Positions 8,237 to 20,998 of a stretch of DNA of 64,000 bases are shown piece after piece. The DNA is from Vibrio azureus (GTDB lineage Bacteria > Pseudomonadota > Gammaproteobacteria > Enterobacterales > Vibrionaceae), in contig NZ_CP018616.1 of assembly GCF_002849855.1 (NCBI RefSeq), positions 186,001-250,000 of the forward strand, in the 5' to 3' direction. The notes beneath the pieces were generated by a model. The model was not told where the DNA came from. It made no database searches and worked only from the letters and a program-made list of their open reading frames with translations. Both the position numbers and the translations under genes were made by a program. Every line of letters starts with the position of its first letter. Position 1 is the stretch's first letter.

Positions 8237-8434
8237 TTAGCTACCTAAAACGTTACCTGAGCGAGAGATGTTTGAGCTCATTTTTTCCCATGCATCTTCT
8301 AGAGATTCTAGGAACCCAGTTCCTTCGCTGCTGAAGATGAAGAAAAGAGCAGAAGACATAGCAACACCAATGATTGCGTATTCAATAGCAGTGATACCGT
8401 CTTCGTTGTTTAGGAAGTTTTTAAATGTGTTCAT
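8237..8434 (-). CDS. flp: Flp/Fap-type prepilin, copy 2
   Basis: Type IVc (Tad) major pilin precursor, 65 aa. It has a short positive leader ending in Gly13, then ITAIEYAIIGVAMSSALF: the prepilin cleavage site with Glu at mature position 5, Tyr at 6, and the hydrophobic assembly helix. A short acidic tail follows. It is almost identical to the copy at 8506-8703, differing in a few leader residues and at F/Y and S/N positions. It lies downstream of that copy (72 bp apart) and ends just ahead of a strong terminator. The ribosome site (AAAGAGAT) is weaker than that of copy 1. Confidence 0.9.
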   Translation of the reverse strand: MNTFKNFLNNEDGITAIEYAIIGVAMSSALFFIFSSEGTGFLESLEDAWEKMSSNISRSGNVLGS

Positions 8435-8505: not shown

Positions 8506-8703
8506 TTAGTTACCTAAAACGTTACCTGAACGAGAGATGTTGGAGCTCATTTTTTCCCATGCATCTTCTAGAGATTCTAGGAACCCAGTTCCTTCGCTGC
8601 TGAAGATGTAGAAAAGAGCAGAAGACATAGCAACACCAATGATTGCGTATTCAATAGCTGTGATACCGTCTTCGTTTTTAATAAAAGTTTTTAATGCGTT
8701 CAT
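8506..8703 (-). CDS. flp: Flp/Fap-type prepilin, copy 1
   Basis: Flp pilin precursor, 65 aa, with leader MNALKTFIKNEDG and mature start ITAIEYAIIG (Glu5, Tyr6). It should be cleaved by the TadV-type peptidase at 9359 and polymerised by the TadA/B/C machine. A strong ribosome site (TAGGAGAT) precedes the ATG on the minus strand, so this is the first cistron of a two-pilin operon. Its nucleotide sequence over about 150 bases is nearly identical to the neighbouring copy, pointing to a recent duplication or gene conversion. It is transcribed away from the tad assembly genes. Confidence 0.9.
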   Translation of the reverse strand: MNALKTFIKNEDGITAIEYAIIGVAMSSALFYIFSSEGTGFLESLEDAWEKMSSNISRSGNVLGN

Positions 8704-9164: not shown

Positions 9165-9350
9165 ATGTTGAATCAACTAAAAAAGTTAATATATTCAGAG
9201 TCAGGTTTAGAAACTGTTGAATACGCAATCATAGGCTGCGTTATAAGCTGTTTTATTTTATACGTAACGGAAAGTAGCGAAATCGTTAATGCAACTAATG
9301 AAGCCTTGATCGATATGAGCAGAACAAATAGCTCTTCACTAAATGGTTAA
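9165..9350 (+). CDS. Third Flp-like prepilin at the head of the tad operon
   Basis: A 61-aa prepilin with cleavage context SESG then LETVEYAIIG, i.e. Gly14, mature Glu5 and Tyr6, followed by a hydrophobic stretch and a Ser/Asn-rich tail. It differs clearly from the minus-strand pair (shorter, LETVEYAIIGCVIS, different tail). The prepilin peptidase gene starts 8 bases after its stop. It could be a minor or alternative pilin subunit made together with the assembly machine. I see no strong ribosome site, so expression may be low. Confidence 0.8.
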   Translation: MLNQLKKLIYSESGLETVEYAIIGCVISCFILYVTESSEIVNATNEALIDMSRTNSSSLNG

Positions 9351-12270: not shown

Positions 12271-13418
12271 TTCTCGAAAAACTAAAAAAAGTAAATAAAA
12301 CCCAATCTGGTGTAAAGTCAAAATCATTTTCTCCTTATATCATCATTGTTATTTCTAATAACATAGATTTAATAGAGCAAATACAGAACTATTTTTCTGC
12401 ATATAGTGTTGATGTCATCAGGTACAATGATAGTTTAGACGCACTCGAAAACTTATTTAACTTGTATTTTAAGTCTAAGGTATATGTTATTAGTGATGAA
12501 CTTACTTTACAGGATAATGGTGGAGTAGAGAAGTTTATAGAGGTTACTAAAGGGCGAGTTGGTACATTACTCTATGGAGAGAAAGAGGAACTGGATTACT
12601 ATTGGACAATAAAATCATCTGGTATTGATGAGTATACAAGCTTATCCGATAAAACTAACCAGGTTTTCAATGTAATCTTATACTTTTTTGGTATTGCAAA
12701 ATCGAGCAGTAGCCACTGGTTTATGATTTCTGATACAACTTCAAGTCATGGAGGTCAGATCCTTCAACATTTATATGAAAGCTTGCACACATATGTTAAA
12801 CAGCGTCCCAGCTTAAATACTTTGTTTATTAATCTTGATATGTATAGTATTTCTTTGGATGCAAGAATAGGGAAAAAAGTTGATTCAAAAATAATAAACT
12901 CTCTAATCAATGATGAAAGCTTAGACATAAAAGTTGCTCAGGAATATATTGTAAAAATCGAAGAAAACTTATCATACTTTTCAATAGATCTATTACATCA
13001 TACTAACTTGAATTCTATAAATAAAATATCAGATAAGTTGATGAGTTTTTTTGATTTATTTGATGGTGATTATTCATATATTTTTATATATGTTCCTTTT
13101 TATATTTCTAAGTTGGATATTTATCACAAGCTAATAAATCGCTCTGACAATGTTACTTTAGTAACAGATGCGTCTCTTGATTCCGTCTATATGCTCAAAT
13201 ATATCACAGAGCAAGAAGGTAAAAATTTAGAAAATAATATTAAGACATTTAAATATGATTCAAATGATGAGGGCAGGTATTTACTAGATGAAGGTAATAT
13301 CTATAAGAAAACAGGACAGAAGATAAGCTATAATTTTAACTTGAATAAAAGAAAAAGATTTTTTAAAGAAAAAAAATCTAGAGATGAAATAATTTATAGG
13401 TTAATTAAAAATGATTGA
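12267..13418 (+). CDS. tadZ: TadZ/CpaE-like pilus localisation protein
   Basis: 383 aa. An N-terminal receiver-like region (YIIIVISNNIDLIEQIQNYF) is followed by a ParA/MinD-like region (HWFMISDTTSSHGGQILQHL ... LFINLDMYSISLD). The Walker A lysine motif KGGxGKT is not present: the corresponding stretch reads DTTSSHGGQ, so nucleotide binding is doubtful. TadZ proteins place the Tad machine at a pole and are often atypical ATPases. It starts in an ATGA overlap with the lipoprotein stop and overlaps tadA by 8 bases, which fixes its place in the order. Confidence 0.75.
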   Translation: MILEKLKKVNKTQSGVKSKSFSPYIIIVISNNIDLIEQIQNYFSAYSVDVIRYNDSLDALENLFNLYFKSKVYVISDELTLQDNGGVEKFIEVTKGRVGTLLYGEKEELDYYWTIKSSGIDEYTSLSDKTNQVFNVILYFFGIAKSSSSHWFMISDTTSSHGGQILQHLYESLHTYVKQRPSLNTLFINLDMYSISLDARIGKKVDSKIINSLINDESLDIKVAQEYIVKIEENLSYFSIDLLHHTNLNSINKISDKLMSFFDLFDGDYSYIFIYVPFYISKLDIYHKLINRSDNVTLVTDASLDSVYMLKYITEQEGKNLENNIKTFKYDSNDEGRYLLDEGNIYKKTGQKISYNFNLNKRKRFFKEKKSRDEIIYRLIKND

Positions 13419-14655
13419 TTCAAATGTTTTTGTCTTATGTAGAAAGTTTGTTCTAGACAATGTTGATATTACCGAGATCCAAGGTGAGGATGACTCAATA
13501 AAGTATGAATATATTTACACTACGGTCATTGAATTTTTATCTAGTTCATCTTTTATATTAACAGAGTCAGATAGGCAGAAATTAACCAAAGATATAAAAG
13601 ATGATATTTTTGGTTACGGGCCTTTAGAACAACTATTGTCTGATTCGACAATAAGTGACATTATGGTTAATAGCTTGAGTGAAACTTTTGTCGAGCGCAA
13701 TGGTAAACTTAATCGAGCATACGATGTATTTTTTCATAACGAGGAACAGGTTTTAAGAATCGCGAAAAAGATTGTTGCTCCCATAGGTCGTCGTATTGAT
13801 GAGAGCTCACCAATGGTTGATGCCAGACTACCAGACGGTAGTCGTGTCAATATTATTGTTCCCCCTGTTGCTTTAGATGGTTGCAGTATTTCTATCCGTA
13901 AGTTTCGTGAAGATAAGCTTGATATTGTCGATCTTGTCCATTTTGAATCAATGACTGAAGAGATGGCTCTGTATTTGAGTGTTATGGTGCGCTCTGCAGC
14001 AAATATTATCATTTCAGGTGGAACAGGTTCTGGTAAAACAACGTTACTTAATGCGTGCTCGAATGAAATTAATGATGGGCATCGTGTGGTTACTATCGAA
14101 GATGCAGCAGAGCTACAGCTGCAACATGGACATGTTGTGCGTTTAGAGTCTAGACCAGCAAGTAGTGAAGAATCTGGTGAAGTATCGATACGTTCACTCG
14201 TGATTAACTCATTACGTATGCGGCCAGATAGAATTATTGTTGGTGAGTGTCGTGGTGATGAGGCATTTGAAATGCTGCAAGCAATGAACACGGGTCATGA
14301 TGGTTCTATGTCAACTATACACTCTAATAACCCTAAAGATGCACTTATTCGTTTAGAAAGTATGATGATGATGACGGCTAGCAACTTGTCAGTGGAATCG
14401 ATAAAGAAACAAATAAGCCAAGCTGTCGATATCATTATACAAACAAGCCGACTTATTGATGGAAGACGTAAAATTACACATATAACAGAAATCGGCAGCT
14501 ATGATTCTGGCATGATCTCAACCCAAGATATTTTTGTATACGATCACAAGACCGATACGCATATTAATGAGGTTAAATCTACTCTTCTAGACCGTAAAGT
14601 TAAAGCGAATGGTTTAGAAAACGAAATGAGTTTGGTATTTCAAAATGGCCTTTAG
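13411..14655 (+). CDS. tadA: Tad pilus assembly/retraction ATPase TadA/CpaF
   Basis: Hexameric secretion ATPase of the VirB11/GspE superfamily, 414 aa, that powers Flp pilus extension and retraction. It shows FGYGPLEQLLSDSTISDIMVN near residue 70, Walker A SGGTGSGKTTLLNA near 203-215, the Asp box and Walker B region (RIIVGECRGDEAFEML) and the His box (GHDGSMSTIHSNNP). All key residues are intact. It is overlapped by tadZ upstream and by tadB downstream. Confidence 0.95.
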   Translation: MIDSNVFVLCRKFVLDNVDITEIQGEDDSIKYEYIYTTVIEFLSSSSFILTESDRQKLTKDIKDDIFGYGPLEQLLSDSTISDIMVNSLSETFVERNGKLNRAYDVFFHNEEQVLRIAKKIVAPIGRRIDESSPMVDARLPDGSRVNIIVPPVALDGCSISIRKFREDKLDIVDLVHFESMTEEMALYLSVMVRSAANIIISGGTGSGKTTLLNACSNEINDGHRVVTIEDAAELQLQHGHVVRLESRPASSEESGEVSIRSLVINSLRMRPDRIIVGECRGDEAFEMLQAMNTGHDGSMSTIHSNNPKDALIRLESMMMMTASNLSVESIKKQISQAVDIIIQTSRLIDGRRKITHITEIGSYDSGMISTQDIFVYDHKTDTHINEVKSTLLDRKVKANGLENEMSLVFQNGL

Positions 14656-15514
14656 GAAAGAAAAACTAGATGATTATATTGAAGATGCGATCATAAATGA
14701 ATCTAAAGAAAATAATATCTTCGATAAAATAAAAGCGAGTTTTAACGATTTTTACTTAAAGTATTTGAGCCAAAATATTTTGATCATGTTCTTCGATATT
14801 TATGGACTAAGTAATTTTATAATTCATATTGGTGTTGTTTTATTTTATATTTCTTTTATGCTCTTTGTTACCGATACTTTCAGATTTTCATACTTTTTGA
14901 CGAGTATTTTGATATCTCTAGTGGTTTTAATTGGTTTTTATCAGATCTTAAACGAGTATAAAAGAAAGCTAAGTGATTACTTTGAAGATAAATTTGCATT
15001 TGCTTTAAGGATGATAAGTAGGAATCTACTTTCTGGCCGAACGATTATTTCTGCTATGGAGTCAGCATCCCGTCATACAGTTGGAAAAATTCGCCTTGAA
15101 TTTGAACGTATCATTAAACAAGTACATGCTGGTAATACTTTGGAAGAGGCGTTAGCTTCAGGAGAAAAAATTTACCCTTACAAAGGCTATATTGTTTTCA
15201 GTGCAAACGTGCAAATGAGCTTAAAGCGTGGAGGGAGTATTAAAGATTCACTTAATGAGCTGGCTCAAGATCTTGTTGCTTCACAAGTTATAAGAAAAAA
15301 AACTCAAGCACTGACCTCTGAATCAAGGGGAGCAGCTAAGATACTCGCATTATTACCTTTCATTATGTTGTTTATATTAAAGAATTTGGCACAAGATAAT
15401 TTTAATTACCTGCTTAATGAACAATATGGTAAGTATATAATTGTCTATGTTGTTGTTAGTGTAACAATTGGTTTTGTTATGATTCAAAAAATGATAAATA
15501 GTGTTTCATTATGA
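14645..15514 (+). CDS. tadB: Tad inner-membrane platform protein TadB
   Basis: GspF-like polytopic platform protein, 289 aa. Two N-terminal membrane segments (IIHIGVVLFYISFMLFVTD; YFLTSILISLVVLIGFYQIL) are followed by the cytosolic T2SSF domain (LRMISRNLLSGRTIISAMES ... RGGSIKDSLNELAQDLV) and C-terminal helices. It works with TadC and TadA. It overlaps tadA by 11 bases and the tadC start by 4. Confidence 0.9.
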   Translation: MAFRKEKLDDYIEDAIINESKENNIFDKIKASFNDFYLKYLSQNILIMFFDIYGLSNFIIHIGVVLFYISFMLFVTDTFRFSYFLTSILISLVVLIGFYQILNEYKRKLSDYFEDKFAFALRMISRNLLSGRTIISAMESASRHTVGKIRLEFERIIKQVHAGNTLEEALASGEKIYPYKGYIVFSANVQMSLKRGGSIKDSLNELAQDLVASQVIRKKTQALTSESRGAAKILALLPFIMLFILKNLAQDNFNYLLNEQYGKYIIVYVVVSVTIGFVMIQKMINSVSL

Positions 15515-15816
15515 TTGTTGCTATAAGCCTTATTGTATTTTTTATAGGTGTATTCATCTTTATAATTAATAGCTTAAATATGAAGAAGGAACAAGATTAT
15601 GTTGATAACTTTATTTTCATGATATCTGATCATGATGATAAACAAGAATATTATAGTATATTTAACCAAATCTCTGAAAAGAAAAAGTTACTTGATGATT
15701 TTTTATATAGTTTATTGTCTAAGTACTTTTCTGAAAGTGAAATGTTTACTATGCTACCAAGTGGAGGGTTAATAGAAAAAAACATAAAACTAACTTCTTT
15801 TTATGTGTTTTCTTAG
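15511..15816 (+). pseudogene. tadC: tadC, 5' part (frameshifted)
   Basis: 101 codons: an N-terminal membrane helix (IVAISLIVFFIGVFIFIINS) and a soluble stretch, ending at TAG 15814-15816. The downstream frame (stop 16404-16406) is open from 15738 and reads on through a second hydrophobic segment (FLEVALFIYFIFFISG) that belongs between the two pieces. Joined by a -1 shift they give a ~295-aa protein, the normal TadC size. So this is one gene broken by a frameshift, not two genes. An A7C run at 15776-15783 is the probable point. It may be mutation, an assembly error or recoding. Confidence 0.8.
15777..15783 (+). other. In-frame slippery heptamer in tadC
   Basis: The bases A-AAA-AAC fall exactly in the zero frame of the upstream tadC part (AAA at 15778-15780, AAC at 15781-15783). 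A -1 slip here leads into the frame of the downstream part. No clear downstream stem-loop is visible in the following AT-rich 70 bases. Confidence 0.5.
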
Positions 15817-15857
15817 AGGTTGCTTTATTTATTTACTTCATTTTTTTTATATCAGGA

Positions 15858-16406
15858 GTGTCAATTAAATCTTTTACTATAGTGATTGTTTTTGTTTATG
15901 TTAACAATATCTTAGTTAAATTATTCTTTGAGAAGTTCTTCATCAAGGAAGAAAGAACTAGAATAAAAGTAAACTTTACTTATTTTCTGGATTTGCTAGC
16001 AACTGCAACGAAATCAGGTATGACGATTGAGCTTGCATTAATTGCGGTCTCTGAGTATATCGGTTCGATGTCATTATCATTGTCTAATTACATTCATATA
16101 TACTCAAATGATATTTCGACTAATGGATTCACAGTAGCAAGTGAAAACTTGAGAAAGAATATTGAAATTCAAGAAATAAAAGATTTCACAGCTGTACTTG
16201 AGAATGCTGTTGAAAGTGGCGCTGCTGTTAATGATGCTTTACGAATGTTATCTAAGGAAACCCGAAGTTTTCATTTTATTGAAACCGAAGAAAAAATTGG
16301 GAAAATAAGTGCTAAAATGGGCGTGCCTCTTATTTTATTCATCATGTTCCCAATCATTGTTGAAATTATTGCTCCTGGTGTTCTCAATCTTATGAGTAAA
16401 CTATAA
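15858..16406 (+). pseudogene. tadC: tadC, 3' part (T2SSF domain)
   Basis: 182 codons from a GTG at 15858, holding a membrane segment (SFTIVIVFVYVNNILVKLFF), the whole GspF-like domain (FLDLLATATKSGMTIELALI ... ENAVESGAAVNDALRML) and two C-terminal hydrophobic segments. AGGAG abuts the GTG with no spacing, so independent initiation would be poor. The frame is open upstream to 15738 and continues the tadC reading after a -1 shift. If translated only from here, the first membrane segments of TadC would be missing. The A of the tadD start codon is the last base of its stop. Confidence 0.75.
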
Positions 16407-17113
16407 TGAAAAAACTGATCATATATTGCCTTTTTGGCTTATGTTTATCTGCTTGTCAAGCAACCAAGACTTCTGAAATTGGTCCTGAGTTGACTTTTAA
16501 CCTAAAAAGCTACGAAAAGGTGATTTCTCAATTATCTGAAAAGAAGTTGCTTACAGACAGAGAAAACTACATGTTGGCGTATTCTTTTTATAAAATTGGT
16601 CAAAGTGATAGAGCTATATTTTTGCTGAGTGGTAAGAAGCAGTTAAAGGATGATGATCTCTATCTTTTAGCTATTATTTATTTAGAAAATAATGATAAAG
16701 CAAGTGCAAAAAACTACTTAGATAAAATAAAGTCCCACAAGTCCTATCAAGAAGATAACAAGCTGGCAGCAAAAGTAGATAATCTCTATTTATTAGCCAA
16801 ATGTGATGATCTTGGTAAAGAGCAATGTAGTACGGAATTTAACTCATTGAGTAAAAAATATCCAACCTCTGAGTTTATTTATAAGAATATGCTCCTGTCT
16901 CACTTCGTTTATCAGCCAAATGACAAGTCTAATTTCTTAAAGATTTATAATACCTATGAAACGAATAAGGAAGATCTGGAGTCTGTTGTACTGGCTGGTG
17001 TGATTTCAGGTCAGGATGATATTGCCATCGAGCTATTAAATAAAAAATATAAAGATAAAGACAAAGTATTATTAATTTATGAAGCGATAAAAGATGCAAA
17101 AGTTAACGAGTGA
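16406..17113 (+). CDS. tadD: TadD-like TPR lipoprotein
   Basis: 235 aa. Signal peptide with lipobox LSAC (Cys17), then helical repeat segments (NYMLAYSFYKIGQSDRAIFL; DDLYLLAIIYLENNDKASAK; EFIYKNMLL) that read as tetratricopeptide-like pairs. TadD is the outer-membrane pilotin-like TPR lipoprotein of the Tad system, and the position after tadC fits. It overlaps the stop of tadC by one base and the next gene by 20. Confidence 0.8.
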   Translation: MKKLIIYCLFGLCLSACQATKTSEIGPELTFNLKSYEKVISQLSEKKLLTDRENYMLAYSFYKIGQSDRAIFLLSGKKQLKDDDLYLLAIIYLENNDKASAKNYLDKIKSHKSYQEDNKLAAKVDNLYLLAKCDDLGKEQCSTEFNSLSKKYPTSEFIYKNMLLSHFVYQPNDKSNFLKIYNTYETNKEDLESVVLAGVISGQDDIAIELLNKKYKDKDKVLLIYEAIKDAKVNE

Positions 17114-17573: not shown

Positions 17574-18087
17574 TACAGATTCCGGCAGCATTGCTGTTGA
17601 AGCGACGATACTTATGCCATGTCTGTTGATTTTGACGCTTCTTATTATGCAATTTTCTGCTGCCACCTCTCTTAAACTTGAGTTATCTGATATGACTTTT
17701 CAAATAGGGCGTTTAATATCGAATAGACATGATGTGTTTTCAGGTAATCTATCTAGCACAGACATCAATAAGATATCTAAGGCTTTTCATCTTGAAGAAA
17801 GAAATATATCTATTTTTGTTGAAGAGCTAGCGTATGGAGAGATTGACTCCAGTGGACAGAATTACAATATATTAAAATTGTATCATGATATTGATGGTCG
17901 GCACTGCGACATAGATGAAGCATTATCTGTTCAGCCAGTAATTAATGCTTTTAATAAGTTTCACTCAGTTTATCGAGTGACTCTATGTCGTCATATTGAG
18001 AGCTTCAATACGCTTCCTATACCCAATACCCTCTATAACTGGTTTGAAGTTAAGTTTTCCTCGACCCACTATGGGATACATCACTAA
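17560..18087 (+). CDS. tadF: TadF-like pseudopilin
   Basis: 175 aa. It begins with NTDSGSIAVEATILMPCLLI, the same SG/S-x-x-VE cleavage and helix arrangement as TadE. The C-terminal domain carries two or three cysteines (HCDID; TLCRHIE). The gene order tadE-tadF-tadG supports the name. It overlaps the previous gene by 14 bases and its stop shares the A of the next ATG. Confidence 0.8.
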   Translation: MNQFNTDSGSIAVEATILMPCLLILTLLIMQFSAATSLKLELSDMTFQIGRLISNRHDVFSGNLSSTDINKISKAFHLEERNISIFVEELAYGEIDSSGQNYNILKLYHDIDGRHCDIDEALSVQPVINAFNKFHSVYRVTLCRHIESFNTLPIPNTLYNWFEVKFSSTHYGIHH

Positions 18088-19691
18088 TGAAGAAGCAACA
18101 AGGCTCGATTATCCCCTTATTTATATTAGTCATGCTTTCTGCCTTTGTGTTCACTTATTACACTTATGATATCAGCCGTAGCTATTTAGCGGCTAAAGTT
18201 CAAATTAACACCACTCGTGAAATTAATAATTTAATTTCAATTAGCGGTGACACACTTACTGATATCAACCAATCGATAGCACAGCTAAATGGACTGGATA
18301 TTGATCATTCAAAAGGAGATTGGTCTTATGACAACTATGAGGAAAATGACGTTATTTCTGTTGTTTCCACAGTTAACTTGACCCAACACCGTAAACTGAC
18401 GCAAGCATTACCGGATGTATCAGATGATGGATTTGAAGTTGAAACTAAGACTATACGAGCTAAGCATTACGAGGATCTGAATATTATCGTGACAATTTCT
18501 GATGATTCAGAGACTAAATACTTGGTCAATAGTGTCAAATATTCACTGAATAATGCTCTTAAAGTCTTATTTGAACACACTAACTCTAATTTGACCGTCG
18601 TTCCTTTTGGCTATCGCATCAATATAAATGGTAAATGCTGGACAACCTTTCCTCGTGGAGATGGTTTTTCTTTTCAATGGTGGGAAGCCTATTATGCACA
18701 ACTTGATATATTAGATGCTCTAGAGCAGCAACAGCAAAATATCGATAATTTGATTGCTAATACCCGTCATCAGATTGAGCAAAAACAAGCCCGCATTGAC
18801 GAAATTGATCAATTACTGGCAACAACAGATGATCCAGAAGAAATCGATAATTTAAACGCAGAAAAAGAAGCACTTGAAGATGAAATACAAGAGTTGCAAA
18901 GGCAGTTAGAAGATTTATTAAACCAGAAGGAAGACATTGATAATCAAGTTAATGATCAGCAACAGACGATCGAGGATTTACAGTCTTCTCCAACATTCAT
19001 GAAATATAATGAATTAGCAGACCATTACGCTAAAAGTGGTCAAAATTATCTTTATATTGACAATTACTTCGATGCTTTTCTTTATGATCACTCTTATGAC
19101 TATACCGAAGATGATGCAAGAGACGACGCTCTTGTTACTGAGTTTAAGCCTGGTTCATTAAATAAGCTTAGCATTACTAAGAATAAATATTTCGGTAACA
19201 GCCAGACTTGCCCAAGTAAAGCAGTCATTGAGGAGACAACGAGTTATCGTGCTTTTCTCTCTACCGTGAACCAAATGAGCTTTAGTTCGCCGTTTGTCTC
19301 ACCCATTCAAGGTGTCAATTATGCGTTGAAGCACTCTTTTTTAAGTAATAAAGCAAACAGAACGGCAGTTATTCATCTTACTGCTTTAACTGATGACAAG
19401 TTATCTGAGCAAGATCAGAAAGAGAGTGATAAAGATATTTTACAACAGTTCTGCCAGACAATAAAAAAAGATTACATCCACGATGTTTCAGCTAAGTCGA
19501 TTTTCATTGTTAACGATGATTCTAATATCTCAGAGATTGAGTCATTAGAATGTGCGAACCTCTGGCATGATCAATACAGTATTATTAACATTGATGAATT
19601 TGATGACGATGACTTACTTACTGATCGTATTGCCTATGAACTTTTACAAGAATCGAGTTCAAACTATATTGGAAATATAAATGAATCATAA
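18087..19691 (+). CDS. tadG: TadG-like protein with coiled-coil insertion
   Basis: 534 aa. N-terminal TadE/G-type anchor (QQGSIIPLFILVMLSAFVFT), then a segment like a von Willebrand A fold (NIIVTISDDSETKYLVNSVK; later FVSPIQGVNYALKHSFLSNK and TAVIHLTALTDDKLSE). The metal site DxSxS is not preserved (TISDDSE). Between these, residues ~208-300 form a strongly predicted coiled coil rich in Gln/Glu/Asp/Leu (IEQKQARIDEIDQLL; LEDEIQELQRQLEDLL). It probably sits in the periplasm as part of the Tad basal apparatus. It overlaps its neighbours by 1 and 11 bases. Confidence 0.8.
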   Translation: MKKQQGSIIPLFILVMLSAFVFTYYTYDISRSYLAAKVQINTTREINNLISISGDTLTDINQSIAQLNGLDIDHSKGDWSYDNYEENDVISVVSTVNLTQHRKLTQALPDVSDDGFEVETKTIRAKHYEDLNIIVTISDDSETKYLVNSVKYSLNNALKVLFEHTNSNLTVVPFGYRININGKCWTTFPRGDGFSFQWWEAYYAQLDILDALEQQQQNIDNLIANTRHQIEQKQARIDEIDQLLATTDDPEEIDNLNAEKEALEDEIQELQRQLEDLLNQKEDIDNQVNDQQQTIEDLQSSPTFMKYNELADHYAKSGQNYLYIDNYFDAFLYDHSYDYTEDDARDDALVTEFKPGSLNKLSITKNKYFGNSQTCPSKAVIEETTSYRAFLSTVNQMSFSSPFVSPIQGVNYALKHSFLSNKANRTAVIHLTALTDDKLSEQDQKESDKDILQQFCQTIKKDYIHDVSAKSIFIVNDDSNISEIESLECANLWHDQYSIINIDEFDDDDLLTDRIAYELLQESSSNYIGNINES

Positions 19692-20289
19692 TTTGAGAAC
19701 CTTATTGTGTGCTTTTGCCTTTTTCTTTGGCATCACACAGTTATCCTATGCAGATGATGTTGTTGATCACTGTGATGCATACTTGATCCCGAAAAATAAA
19801 ATAAAAGATGGTAGTTACTATTCTTTTATGGGACGTACGATCGAATCACATTCAGTGCAAAGTTATCTACTAAAGCAAAAGTTGAGCGAGTTTAAATCGG
19901 CTGCGTATGATATCTGTGAGAGAAGTGATTTTTCTTTCCTTCATCGCACCTTGAGCGCCAGTCGCTTTACACATCTTTCAACTCTCTATTTTGAGACTGA
20001 TTTTTTTGAAATCAATGATAGGGACCTCTCGCACATATCATCGTCTAATGAATTTATTGACGCCGATGCTTTATTAATTGTTGGTTCTGCCTCTGTGATC
20101 GGTGATGATTTCCACAACTTGAATTTATCGTTGAAGCGTGCAGACCAAGTTGTACAGCGTTTAAAAGGCCGAAAAGACATTTTCCTATTGAATATCGGTG
20201 CTTTTGGTCAAGATACAACTCGTGCGAATGATGAATTTTACAAGGCTAAACGCCGCAGTGTTTCCATCTATGGGCTTTCTTATGAATAA
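19681..20289 (+). CDS. OmpA-like periplasmic protein of the tad operon
   Basis: 202 aa with a signal peptide (LLCAFAFFFGITQLSYA). The C-terminal ~90 residues resemble an OmpA_C domain: LYFETDFFEINDRDLSHIS, then VGSASVIGDDFHNLNLSLKRADQV and a final AKRRSVSIYG. The peptidoglycan-binding Asp of the usual GHTD is replaced (GSAS), so muramyl binding may be lost or altered. OmpA-like proteins often end tad loci. Its stop overlaps the start of the regulator gene by 8 bases, suggesting that their synthesis is coupled. Confidence 0.7.
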   Translation: MNHNLRTLLCAFAFFFGITQLSYADDVVDHCDAYLIPKNKIKDGSYYSFMGRTIESHSVQSYLLKQKLSEFKSAAYDICERSDFSFLHRTLSASRFTHLSTLYFETDFFEINDRDLSHISSSNEFIDADALLIVGSASVIGDDFHNLNLSLKRADQVVQRLKGRKDIFLLNIGAFGQDTTRANDEFYKAKRRSVSIYGLSYE

Positions 20290-20998
20290 GCAAGTATTCT
20301 GGAAACTGGATAAAAGCCATCGCAGACTGTACGGTGAAAATGGCATAGAGATACATTTTACCAAATATGAGTTTAATCTGTTTTTTTACTTGTTGTCCCA
20401 GCAACAACAGGTGTGTTCTAGTTCATCGATCATTGAGCAAGTTTGGGGTGATTCGCCAAAGGGCAGCTATGCTGCAGACAGTTCAAATCTTATTCAGTTA
20501 ATCTCTAAAATTAGGCGGCAGTTAAAACCGCTTGAAAAAATCATGGAAATTAAAAGCCAACGTGGTGTGGGCTACTTTCTTTCTATGTCTGAAGGGTATG
20601 TGTTTAATGACGATGAAATAAGCTACACCCCACAAACGATTTACGATAGAGATTCTGAGACGGAAAAAAAATATCGCTTTTATCAAAGCCAATTTTTAAA
20701 ACAGCTGTTTAGTCTTAACCAAGATCGTCAATTTAGAATACGCGATTTTGGTTTCGTGTTGCTTCTTTCAGTGTTTTTTGGGGGGATTTTATTGTTGCGC
20801 CAGACTTCGCGGCTTCCGACAAGTCCAGTTTACAAGGCGAATTCTGGTTTGCATGTTGGAGACTGTGGCATTCCATCAGAGCTGATTTTTACTCAAGAAA
20901 ATTTGGCTTGTAGCGATATCAGCGACTTTAATTTTGCACAAGATCATTCCTATATCATCAGTAAAGCAGCAGGGAATATCTATGTTTCTTCGTTTTAA
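20282..20998 (+). CDS. ToxR-like membrane-bound transcriptional regulator
   Basis: 238 aa. The cytoplasmic N-terminus is an OmpR-type winged helix (FTKYEFNLFFYLLSQQQQVC ... SNLIQLISKIRRQLKPL ... SQRGVGYFLS), without a receiver domain. A single membrane helix (FVLLLSVFFGGILLL, near residues 156-172) leads to a short periplasmic tail with two cysteines (Cys195 and Cys210). This is the ToxR/CadC one-component layout: an envelope signal controls DNA binding directly. It is buried in the tad operon, so it probably regulates pilin or tad expression; that target is inferred. The frame is open upstream to 20198, but the ATG at 20282 fits the domain start. Confidence 0.8.
   Translation: MNKQVFWKLDKSHRRLYGENGIEIHFTKYEFNLFFYLLSQQQQVCSSSSIIEQVWGDSPKGSYAADSSNLIQLISKIRRQLKPLEKIMEIKSQRGVGYFLSMSEGYVFNDDEISYTPQTIYDRDSETEKKYRFYQSQFLKQLFSLNQDRQFRIRDFGFVLLLSVFFGGILLLRQTSRLPTSPVYKANSGLHVGDCGIPSELIFTQENLACSDISDFNFAQDHSYIISKAAGNIYVSSF

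What the first reader, a model, noticed from the sequence alone, without database searches (positions are those of the whole stretch)
15511..16406. tadC split by a -1 frameshift exactly at an A-AAA-AAC heptamer
The two frames overlap in 15738-15816. Joined by one -1 step they restore a ~295-aa TadC with all membrane segments. The only homopolymer of seven in the overlap, A7 followed by C, is in phase as X-XXY-YYZ with the upstream frame. All other tad genes look intact. If the slip is used (ribosomal or RNA-polymerase slippage), Tad pilus output would be limited by TadC dose; if it is a fixed or phase-variable indel, the machine is off in part of the population. No downstream stimulatory stem was seen, which favours a mutation, polymerase slippage or an assembly error over ribosomal recoding.
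Basis: partly seen in the sequence, partly recalled or inferred. Interest (0 to 1): 0.72.

Follow-up and report, generated by a model that had tools for sequence, protein, structure and literature searches.

The report
Strain-specific frameshift in a Vibrio tadC
A gene for part of a bacterial adhesion-pilus machine is broken by a one-base reading-frame error in this one marine Vibrio genome; close relatives have it whole, so it looks like an ordinary recent mutation (or sequencing error) and not a deliberate translation trick.

Summary
In detail: tadC of a Vibrio Tad-pilus locus (nearest named relative V. sagamiensis) lies in two frames, 15511-15816 and 15741-16406, one base out of register, with in-phase A_AAA_AAC at 15777-15783. 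Recoding is not supported. All 15 protein clusters at 64-98% identity to the downstream piece read through the site in one frame. V. sagamiensis DNA has no such A run; AND4 has seven A there in an unbroken gene. In-frame X_XXY_YYZ heptamers are common: 607 in 135,334 codons, about 0.12 expected in the overlap. No nested downstream structure beats shuffles. A GGAGGG lies 8 nt upstream, but by a published rule such sites are no commoner at A_AAA_AAN than elsewhere. Both halves show ordinary purifying selection. This is the only uncompensated interior gene break found in 71,845 aligned coding bases; 23 of 24 A/T runs of seven or more there have no frame-changing gap nearby. Best reading: a recent strain-level indel, tadC null or nearly so. 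Main rival: a local consensus error. Slight leakage at A_AAA_AAC remains possible.

The parts
15511..15816 (+). tadC upstream piece: 101 aa, one N-terminal membrane segment (residues 1-26); the last residues after the A tract are out of frame
   Evidence: its first 90 residues are those of the intact relative P0003
15741..16406 (+). tadC downstream open frame: remaining hydrophobic segments and the T2SSF domain (PF00482, E 1.1e-9); begins at the first codon after the TGA at 15738
15776..15782 (+). run of seven A, the only homopolymer of six or more in the overlap
15777..15783 (+). A_AAA_AAC heptamer, in phase X_XXY_YYZ with the upstream frame (same motif as the IS1 frameshift site)
   Evidence: motif use in IS1: passages of PMC12428005
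15763..15768 (+). GGAGGG, Shine-Dalgarno-like, 8 nt before the heptamer; not present in V. sagamiensis or AND4
15858..15860 (+). GTG, first possible start in the downstream frame (would give 182 aa); AGGA directly abuts it, so spacing looks poor for initiation
   Evidence: spacing judged by reading the sequence
13411..14655 (+). tadA (T2SSE ATPase), intact, 414 aa
14645..15514 (+). tadB (T2SSF), intact, 289 aa
16406..17113 (+). tadD (TPR protein), intact, 235 aa
9359..20289 (+). rest of the Tad locus: prepilin peptidase, rcpC-like, secretin, tadZ-like, tadE/F/G-like and OmpA-like ORFs; no other uncompensated interior frame break found (several names are from position in the locus, recalled, not from a call)

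Best explanation
tadC of this Tad locus carries a recent one-base frameshift, net one base short against intact orthologues at or beside 15776-15783, seen in this genome only. Translation makes a 101-aa N-terminal piece with one membrane segment and stops at 15816. The T2SSF part of the inner-membrane platform is made little or not at all, so this pilus machine is predicted to be off or nearly off in this strain. The A_AAA_AAC motif at the break is a by-product of the sequence there, not a programmed site. Shown: the split, the intact copies, constraint on both halves, no general frame damage in the stretch of assembly compared. Inferred: that it is a true mutation and that the pilus is lost.
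For: Of 227 genus genomes, 4 match at E<=1e-30: the window's, G043 (84%), G238 (68%) and G031 (32%, not this locus). tadC has an open frame of 301 and 302 codons in G043 and G238, 221 only here; G238 has the same DNA at the site as AND4, so these are two other lineages. All 15 protein clusters at 64% identity or more to the downstream piece (P0003-P0017) read through the site in one frame (12 aligned, the other 3). They are not all independent: two rows each stand for V. sagamiensis (P0006, P0007) and AND4 (P0014, P0015). The 98% copy P0003 is 298 aa and has the window's first 90 residues. A search with the 101-aa split form gave two rows: itself, on a contig of 3,027,809 bases that by its length is evidently the window's own genome, and P0081, which ends at residue 70, before the site. 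dN/dS against V. sagamiensis is 0.086 (upstream) and 0.105 (downstream), inside the 0.035-0.139 range of 11 neighbouring genes. It is the only uncompensated interior gene break found in 71,845 aligned coding bases (with checks 42, 43, 73-75, 77). A control over 148 relatives shows such breaks are not peculiar to tadC.
Against: No reads are available, so a local consensus error cannot be excluded. Low dN/dS on both halves fits an error or a still-used gene as well as a recent mutation. The in-phase A_AAA_AAC plus a nearby GGAGGG could allow some full-length product, and A_AAA_AAC is a proven frameshift motif in an IS without an established stimulator (PMC4066793, passage). The search for other genomes sharing the split covered proteins of 55-177 aa and one genome per species, so a strain annotated as a pseudogene would be missed.
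Confidence: 0.65

Rival explanations
1. Sequencing or assembly error: the strain's tadC is whole and the consensus is one base wrong at the A-rich stretch.
For: A run of seven A is a usual place for long-read errors (recalled). The reading-frame survey PMC3711429 (passages read) expects singleton breaks validated by BLASTp to be sequencing errors rather than genuine indels. Both halves are under normal constraint. Intact near-identical copy P0003 exists.
Against: No other uncompensated interior gene break found in 71,845 aligned coding bases; of 24 A/T runs of 7 or more there, 23 have no frame-changing gap within 12 nt. 100 interior A/T runs of 7-8 lie inside long open frames in 520 kb sampled. 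The two near intact alleles do not carry a longer A run here (V. sagamiensis by DNA, P0003 inferred from its protein), so the error would not be a plain shortening of their tract. AND4 has seven A but is distant.
Confidence: 0.22
2. Functional -1 slippage at A_AAA_AAC (ribosome, or RNA polymerase on the A run) makes a little full-length TadC, limiting Tad pilus output.
For: A6C is the IS1 frameshift motif, with about 2% reported in a plasmid system (PMC12428005, passages), and PMC4066793 calls an A_AAA_AAC IS cluster a proven case with no established stimulator (passage). GGAGGG lies within the stimulatory distance of that paper's rule (rule, met), and a stricter motif set is found before 0 of 49 comparable sites. 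Both halves constrained. Platform proteins may be needed in few copies (recalled).
Against: Split absent from 15 of 15 near protein clusters; in-phase heptamer absent from V. sagamiensis and AND4, the only relatives whose DNA I read at the site. No nested downstream structure beyond shuffles: z -1.16, -0.50, +1.01, +0.07 (pseudoknots not tested). Without stimulators the heptamers scored as frameshift-prone in E. coli gave 2.1-10 times a 0.055% background (PMC4066793 section 17; the value for A_AAA_AAC itself is in a figure I did not see). Transcription insertions rise exponentially with run length (PMC5574713 section 7) and selection against A/T runs sets in at nine bases in many genomes (PMC1088944, passages). 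By the looser rule SD-like sites precede 10 of 118 A_AAA_AAN heptamers against a 9.5% background.
Confidence: 0.08
3. Phase variation: reversible length changes of the A run switch tadC on and off in the population.
For: Surface and pilus genes are usual targets (PMC3711429, passages). Another Vibrio genome (G003) has a tadC-like gene broken at an eight-A run, at a different place.
Against: The run is only seven long. The near intact alleles differ by more than tract length. AND4 keeps seven A with an intact gene. The tadB control shows similar numbers of breaks, so nothing singles out tadC.
Confidence: 0.05

Closest known systems
Strain-specific frameshift pseudogenes or singleton frame transitions (class in PMC3711429)
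   Same: One-base break, intact orthologues in close relatives, no conserved split
   Different: Nothing found that differs; true indel and sequencing error not separated
IS1 insA-insB' -1 frameshifting at A6C
   Same: Same A_AAA_AAC motif, same direction of shift, in the overlap of two frames
   Different: tad locus and not an IS; split not conserved; no nested downstream structure beyond chance (pseudoknots not tested; for IS1 itself sources differ on whether a stimulator is established)
E. coli dnaX -1 frameshifting
   Same: A-rich slippery heptamer with a Shine-Dalgarno-like sequence just upstream (8 nt here, 10 nt in the dnaX-based construct of PMC11162774)
   Different: AAC instead of AAG in the A site; no strong downstream hairpin; in dnaX the shift makes a shorter second product (recalled), here it would be needed for the only full-length one
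TadC / T2SSF platform protein of Tad (Flp, type IVc) pili
   Same: Position between tadB and tadD; PF00482 domain; orthologues of 298 aa
   Different: Open frame split in this genome only, among those examined

Membership tests
Programmed -1 ribosomal frameshift gene | Split organisation conserved in orthologues | tested here: not met
   15 of 15 clusters at 64% identity or more read through the site (14, 16, 76); V. sagamiensis and AND4 loci unsplit
Programmed -1 ribosomal frameshift gene | In-phase slippery heptamer in the overlap | tested here: met
   A_AAA_AAC 15777-15783 (25); but 0.12-0.14 such heptamers expected by chance
Programmed -1 ribosomal frameshift gene | Conserved slippery heptamer | tested here: not met
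   No in-phase heptamer at this place in V. sagamiensis or AND4/G238 DNA; DNA of the other relatives not seen
Programmed -1 ribosomal frameshift gene | Downstream stimulatory structure | tested here: inconclusive
   Four folds of 50-120 nt no better than shuffles; the program predicts no pseudoknots
Programmed -1 ribosomal frameshift gene | Upstream Shine-Dalgarno-like stimulator | tested here: inconclusive
   GGAGGG present. Tight rule: 0 of 49 comparable A_AAA_AAC/G sites, background 2-2.4%. Published looser rule: 10 of 118 against 9.5%. Not in V. sagamiensis or AND4 (52)
Programmed -1 ribosomal frameshift gene | Full-length product made | not testable with these tools
   Needs proteomics or a reporter
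Homopolymer phase-variable gene | ON and OFF alleles differing only in tract length | tested here: not met
   The intact alleles seen differ from the window allele by more than tract length; P0003 judged from its protein; other strains not seen
Strain-specific indel pseudogene | Intact close orthologues and a lesion in one lineage | tested here: met
Strain-specific indel pseudogene | Lesion confirmed in the DNA of the strain | not testable with these tools
   No reads held
Tad pilus platform protein TadC | T2SSF domain, gene between tadB and tadD in a tad locus | tested here: met

The most novel reading that the evidence does not exclude
A fresh indel in tadC has fallen on a site where A_AAA_AAC and an upstream GGAGGG together allow enough ribosomal slippage to keep a little TadC. 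The strain would have turned an all-or-none pilus platform gene into a low-dose one: a newborn, unconserved recoding site of the adventitious kind.
Probability: 0.06. Interest if true: 0.5.

Novelty: new member of a known kind. Interest (0 to 1): 0.14.

Why it matters
Mostly as a caution: a split gene with a perfect slippery heptamer at the junction looks like recoding, but such heptamers turn up in frame about once per 185-225 codons here, and near-identical intact copies argue strongly against a programmed site. If the break is real, this Vibrio probably lacks one of its two Tad-type machines; a second locus at G000:C1 about 2.380-2.390 Mb has intact core frames.

Tried and rejected
Downstream stem search: four stretches folded, none beyond shuffles. 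Ab initio frameshift scan with a coding-potential HMM: a first form found no switches, a second stopped on a script error, and the working form did not flag tadC itself, probably because it restarted at the GTG; it lacked sensitivity and I did not use it. I replaced it with alignment to V. sagamiensis.

Gaps found there that were not gene breaks: L068:2076 lies outside the small minus-strand gene. Window 40988 lies between two minus-strand genes. Window 42947 lies before the start of the V. sagamiensis gene. The other rows sum to a multiple of three within the same ORF, lie near gene starts or ends, or touch an ORF without a counterpart. Nine queries besides tadC were checked with tblastn; one of them (L063:18408, 369 aa) had no match in the window.

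Considered: recurrent tadC breaks as a sign of phase variation (G003, an eight-A run; G061, one in-frame TAA). Rejected, because the tadB control shows breaks too (G039, one TAG; G003:C2, a 114-aa frame). In both calls only the best rows are printed and more matches are not listed. Considered: a two-polypeptide TadC with reinitiation at GTG 15858; unlikely from its spacing, not tested.

Plasmid searches with stretches of C4 and C3 did not name the strain. Literature: 'tadC' with 'frameshift' gave 3 papers, none about this as judged from the listing. 'Tad pilus', 'Vibrio', 'tadC' gave 16 papers, 15 seen as a listing only. Searches with 'A AAA AAC', 'dnaX', 'transcriptional slippage' and 'AAAAAAC' gave general recoding papers. 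No wider claim about what is in print is made.

Full report
What is there. The window lies in a Vibrio genome of 4.83 Mb in 4 contigs, whose nearest named relative at this locus is V. sagamiensis NBRC 104589, of the harveyi group. A Tad-pilus locus occupies about 8.2-20.3 kb. Its tadC is in two same-strand frames: 15511-15816 (101 aa) and an open frame from 15741 to 16406 with the T2SSF domain. A7 at 15776-15782 is the only run of six or more in the overlap, and A_AAA_AAC at 15777-15783 is in phase with the upstream frame.

Is it more than chance? In-frame X_XXY_YYZ heptamers occur 19 times in 3,511 codons of this locus and 607 times in 135,334 codons of 393 long ORFs sampled from the genome, so 0.12-0.14 are expected in 26 codons. 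In those ORFs A_AAA_AAC occurs in frame 25 times, and there are 100 interior A/T runs of seven or eight. tadD of this same locus carries A_AAA_AAC in frame at 16708 and is intact. The motif is no evidence of recoding by itself.

Relatives. Of 227 genus genomes 4 match at E<=1e-30: the window's, G043 (84%), G238 (68%) and G031 (32%, another locus). G043 and G238 have one open frame of 301-302 codons. A genome-contig scan names V. sagamiensis and Vibrio sp. AND4, both with 298-aa tadC; G238 has the same DNA as AND4 at the site, so two other lineages are seen. The protein database holds 15 clusters at 64-98% identity to the downstream piece, and all 15 cross the site in one frame; V. sagamiensis and AND4 each account for two of them. 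The best, P0003, is 98% identical to the downstream piece and has the window's first 90 residues, so the split is probably not even general in this species. A search with the split N-terminal piece found it full length only on a contig that by length is the window's own genome; the other match, P0081, ends before the site. At the site V. sagamiensis has no A run longer than four, and AND4 has seven A in a different phase and an unbroken gene. The DNA of the other relatives was not seen.

Age and selection. NG86 dN/dS against V. sagamiensis is 0.086 and 0.105 for the two pieces and 0.035-0.139 for 11 neighbouring genes. Both halves were under ordinary purifying selection until very recently, or still are; this cannot separate a new mutation, an error and a leaky gene.

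Assembly quality. Against V. sagamiensis, 82,518 bases of this genome align at 80% identity or more in pieces of 300 bases or more; 71,845 of them are in ORFs of 80 aa or more. The tadC gap is the only one found that is uncompensated and interior to a real gene (doubtful cases resolved). Of 24 A/T runs of seven or longer there, only the tadC run has a frame-changing gap within 12 nt. One event is too few for a rate, but the compared part of the assembly is plainly not full of homopolymer errors.

Could it be read through? No nested downstream structure beats shuffles; pseudoknots were not tested. GGAGGG lies 8 nt before the heptamer. A strict five-base motif set is found before 0 of 49 comparable A_AAA_AAC/G sites, with a background of 2.05% (2.4% in A+T-rich ORFs). 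The published looser rule is met here but also by 10 of 118 A_AAA_AAN sites, with a background of 9.5%. The sequence is not kept in V. sagamiensis or AND4. E. coli precedent: frameshift-prone heptamers without stimulators gave 2.1-10 times a 0.055% background (PMC4066793, section 17; the figure with the A_AAA_AAC value was not seen). The same paper calls an A_AAA_AAC IS cluster a proven case without established stimulator (passage). IS1 with the A6C motif is put at about 2% in a plasmid system, and the motif alone is called effectively very low (PMC12428005, passages). For RNA polymerase, insertions grow exponentially with run length (PMC5574713, abstract and section 7) and selection against runs sets in at nine in many genomes (PMC1088944, passages). 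So I infer 0.1-2% full-length product at most.

tadC-specific? There is no sign of a tadC hot spot.

Verdict. A recent strain-level one-base frameshift in tadC (0.65), or a local consensus error (0.22). Functional slippage (0.08) and phase variation (0.05) are minor. If real, the N-terminal piece keeps one membrane segment and the T2SSF part is lost, so this Tad machine should be off. A second Tad-type locus at G000:C1 2.380-2.390 Mb has intact tadA-, tadB- and tadC-like frames.

Noticed in passing
L080 (G003:C1:1598800-1601200, minus strand): A tadC-like gene of another, unnamed Vibrio is broken near its C-terminal end at a run of eight A, a different place from the window's break; the same genome also has a short 114-aa tadB-like frame on C2.
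   Followed up: partly
8237-8434 (-), 8506-8703 (-), 9165-9350 (+): Two nearly identical Flp/Fap pilin genes on the minus strand face away from the Tad operon; a third small pilin-like ORF without a Pfam hit starts the plus-strand operon.
   Followed up: no
20198-20998 (+): ORF with a Trans_reg_C (winged-helix) domain directly after the Tad locus, with a similar-sized ORF at the same place in V. sagamiensis; a possible ToxR-like regulator of the locus (guess).
   Followed up: no
18087-19691 (+): The tadG-like ORF carries a long Glu/Gln-rich stretch with weak SMC/Rad50-type matches far below cut-offs and no Pfam hit.
   Followed up: no
G000:C4:40216-42509 (L061): The 109-kb contig C4 carries T2SSE and T2SSF genes, a further pilus or secretion system on a probable plasmid.
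   Followed up: no
G000:C1 length 3,027,709 against database contig 3,027,809: The protein database lists the split piece on a contig exactly 100 bases longer, probably another version of the same assembly; not independent evidence.
   Followed up: no
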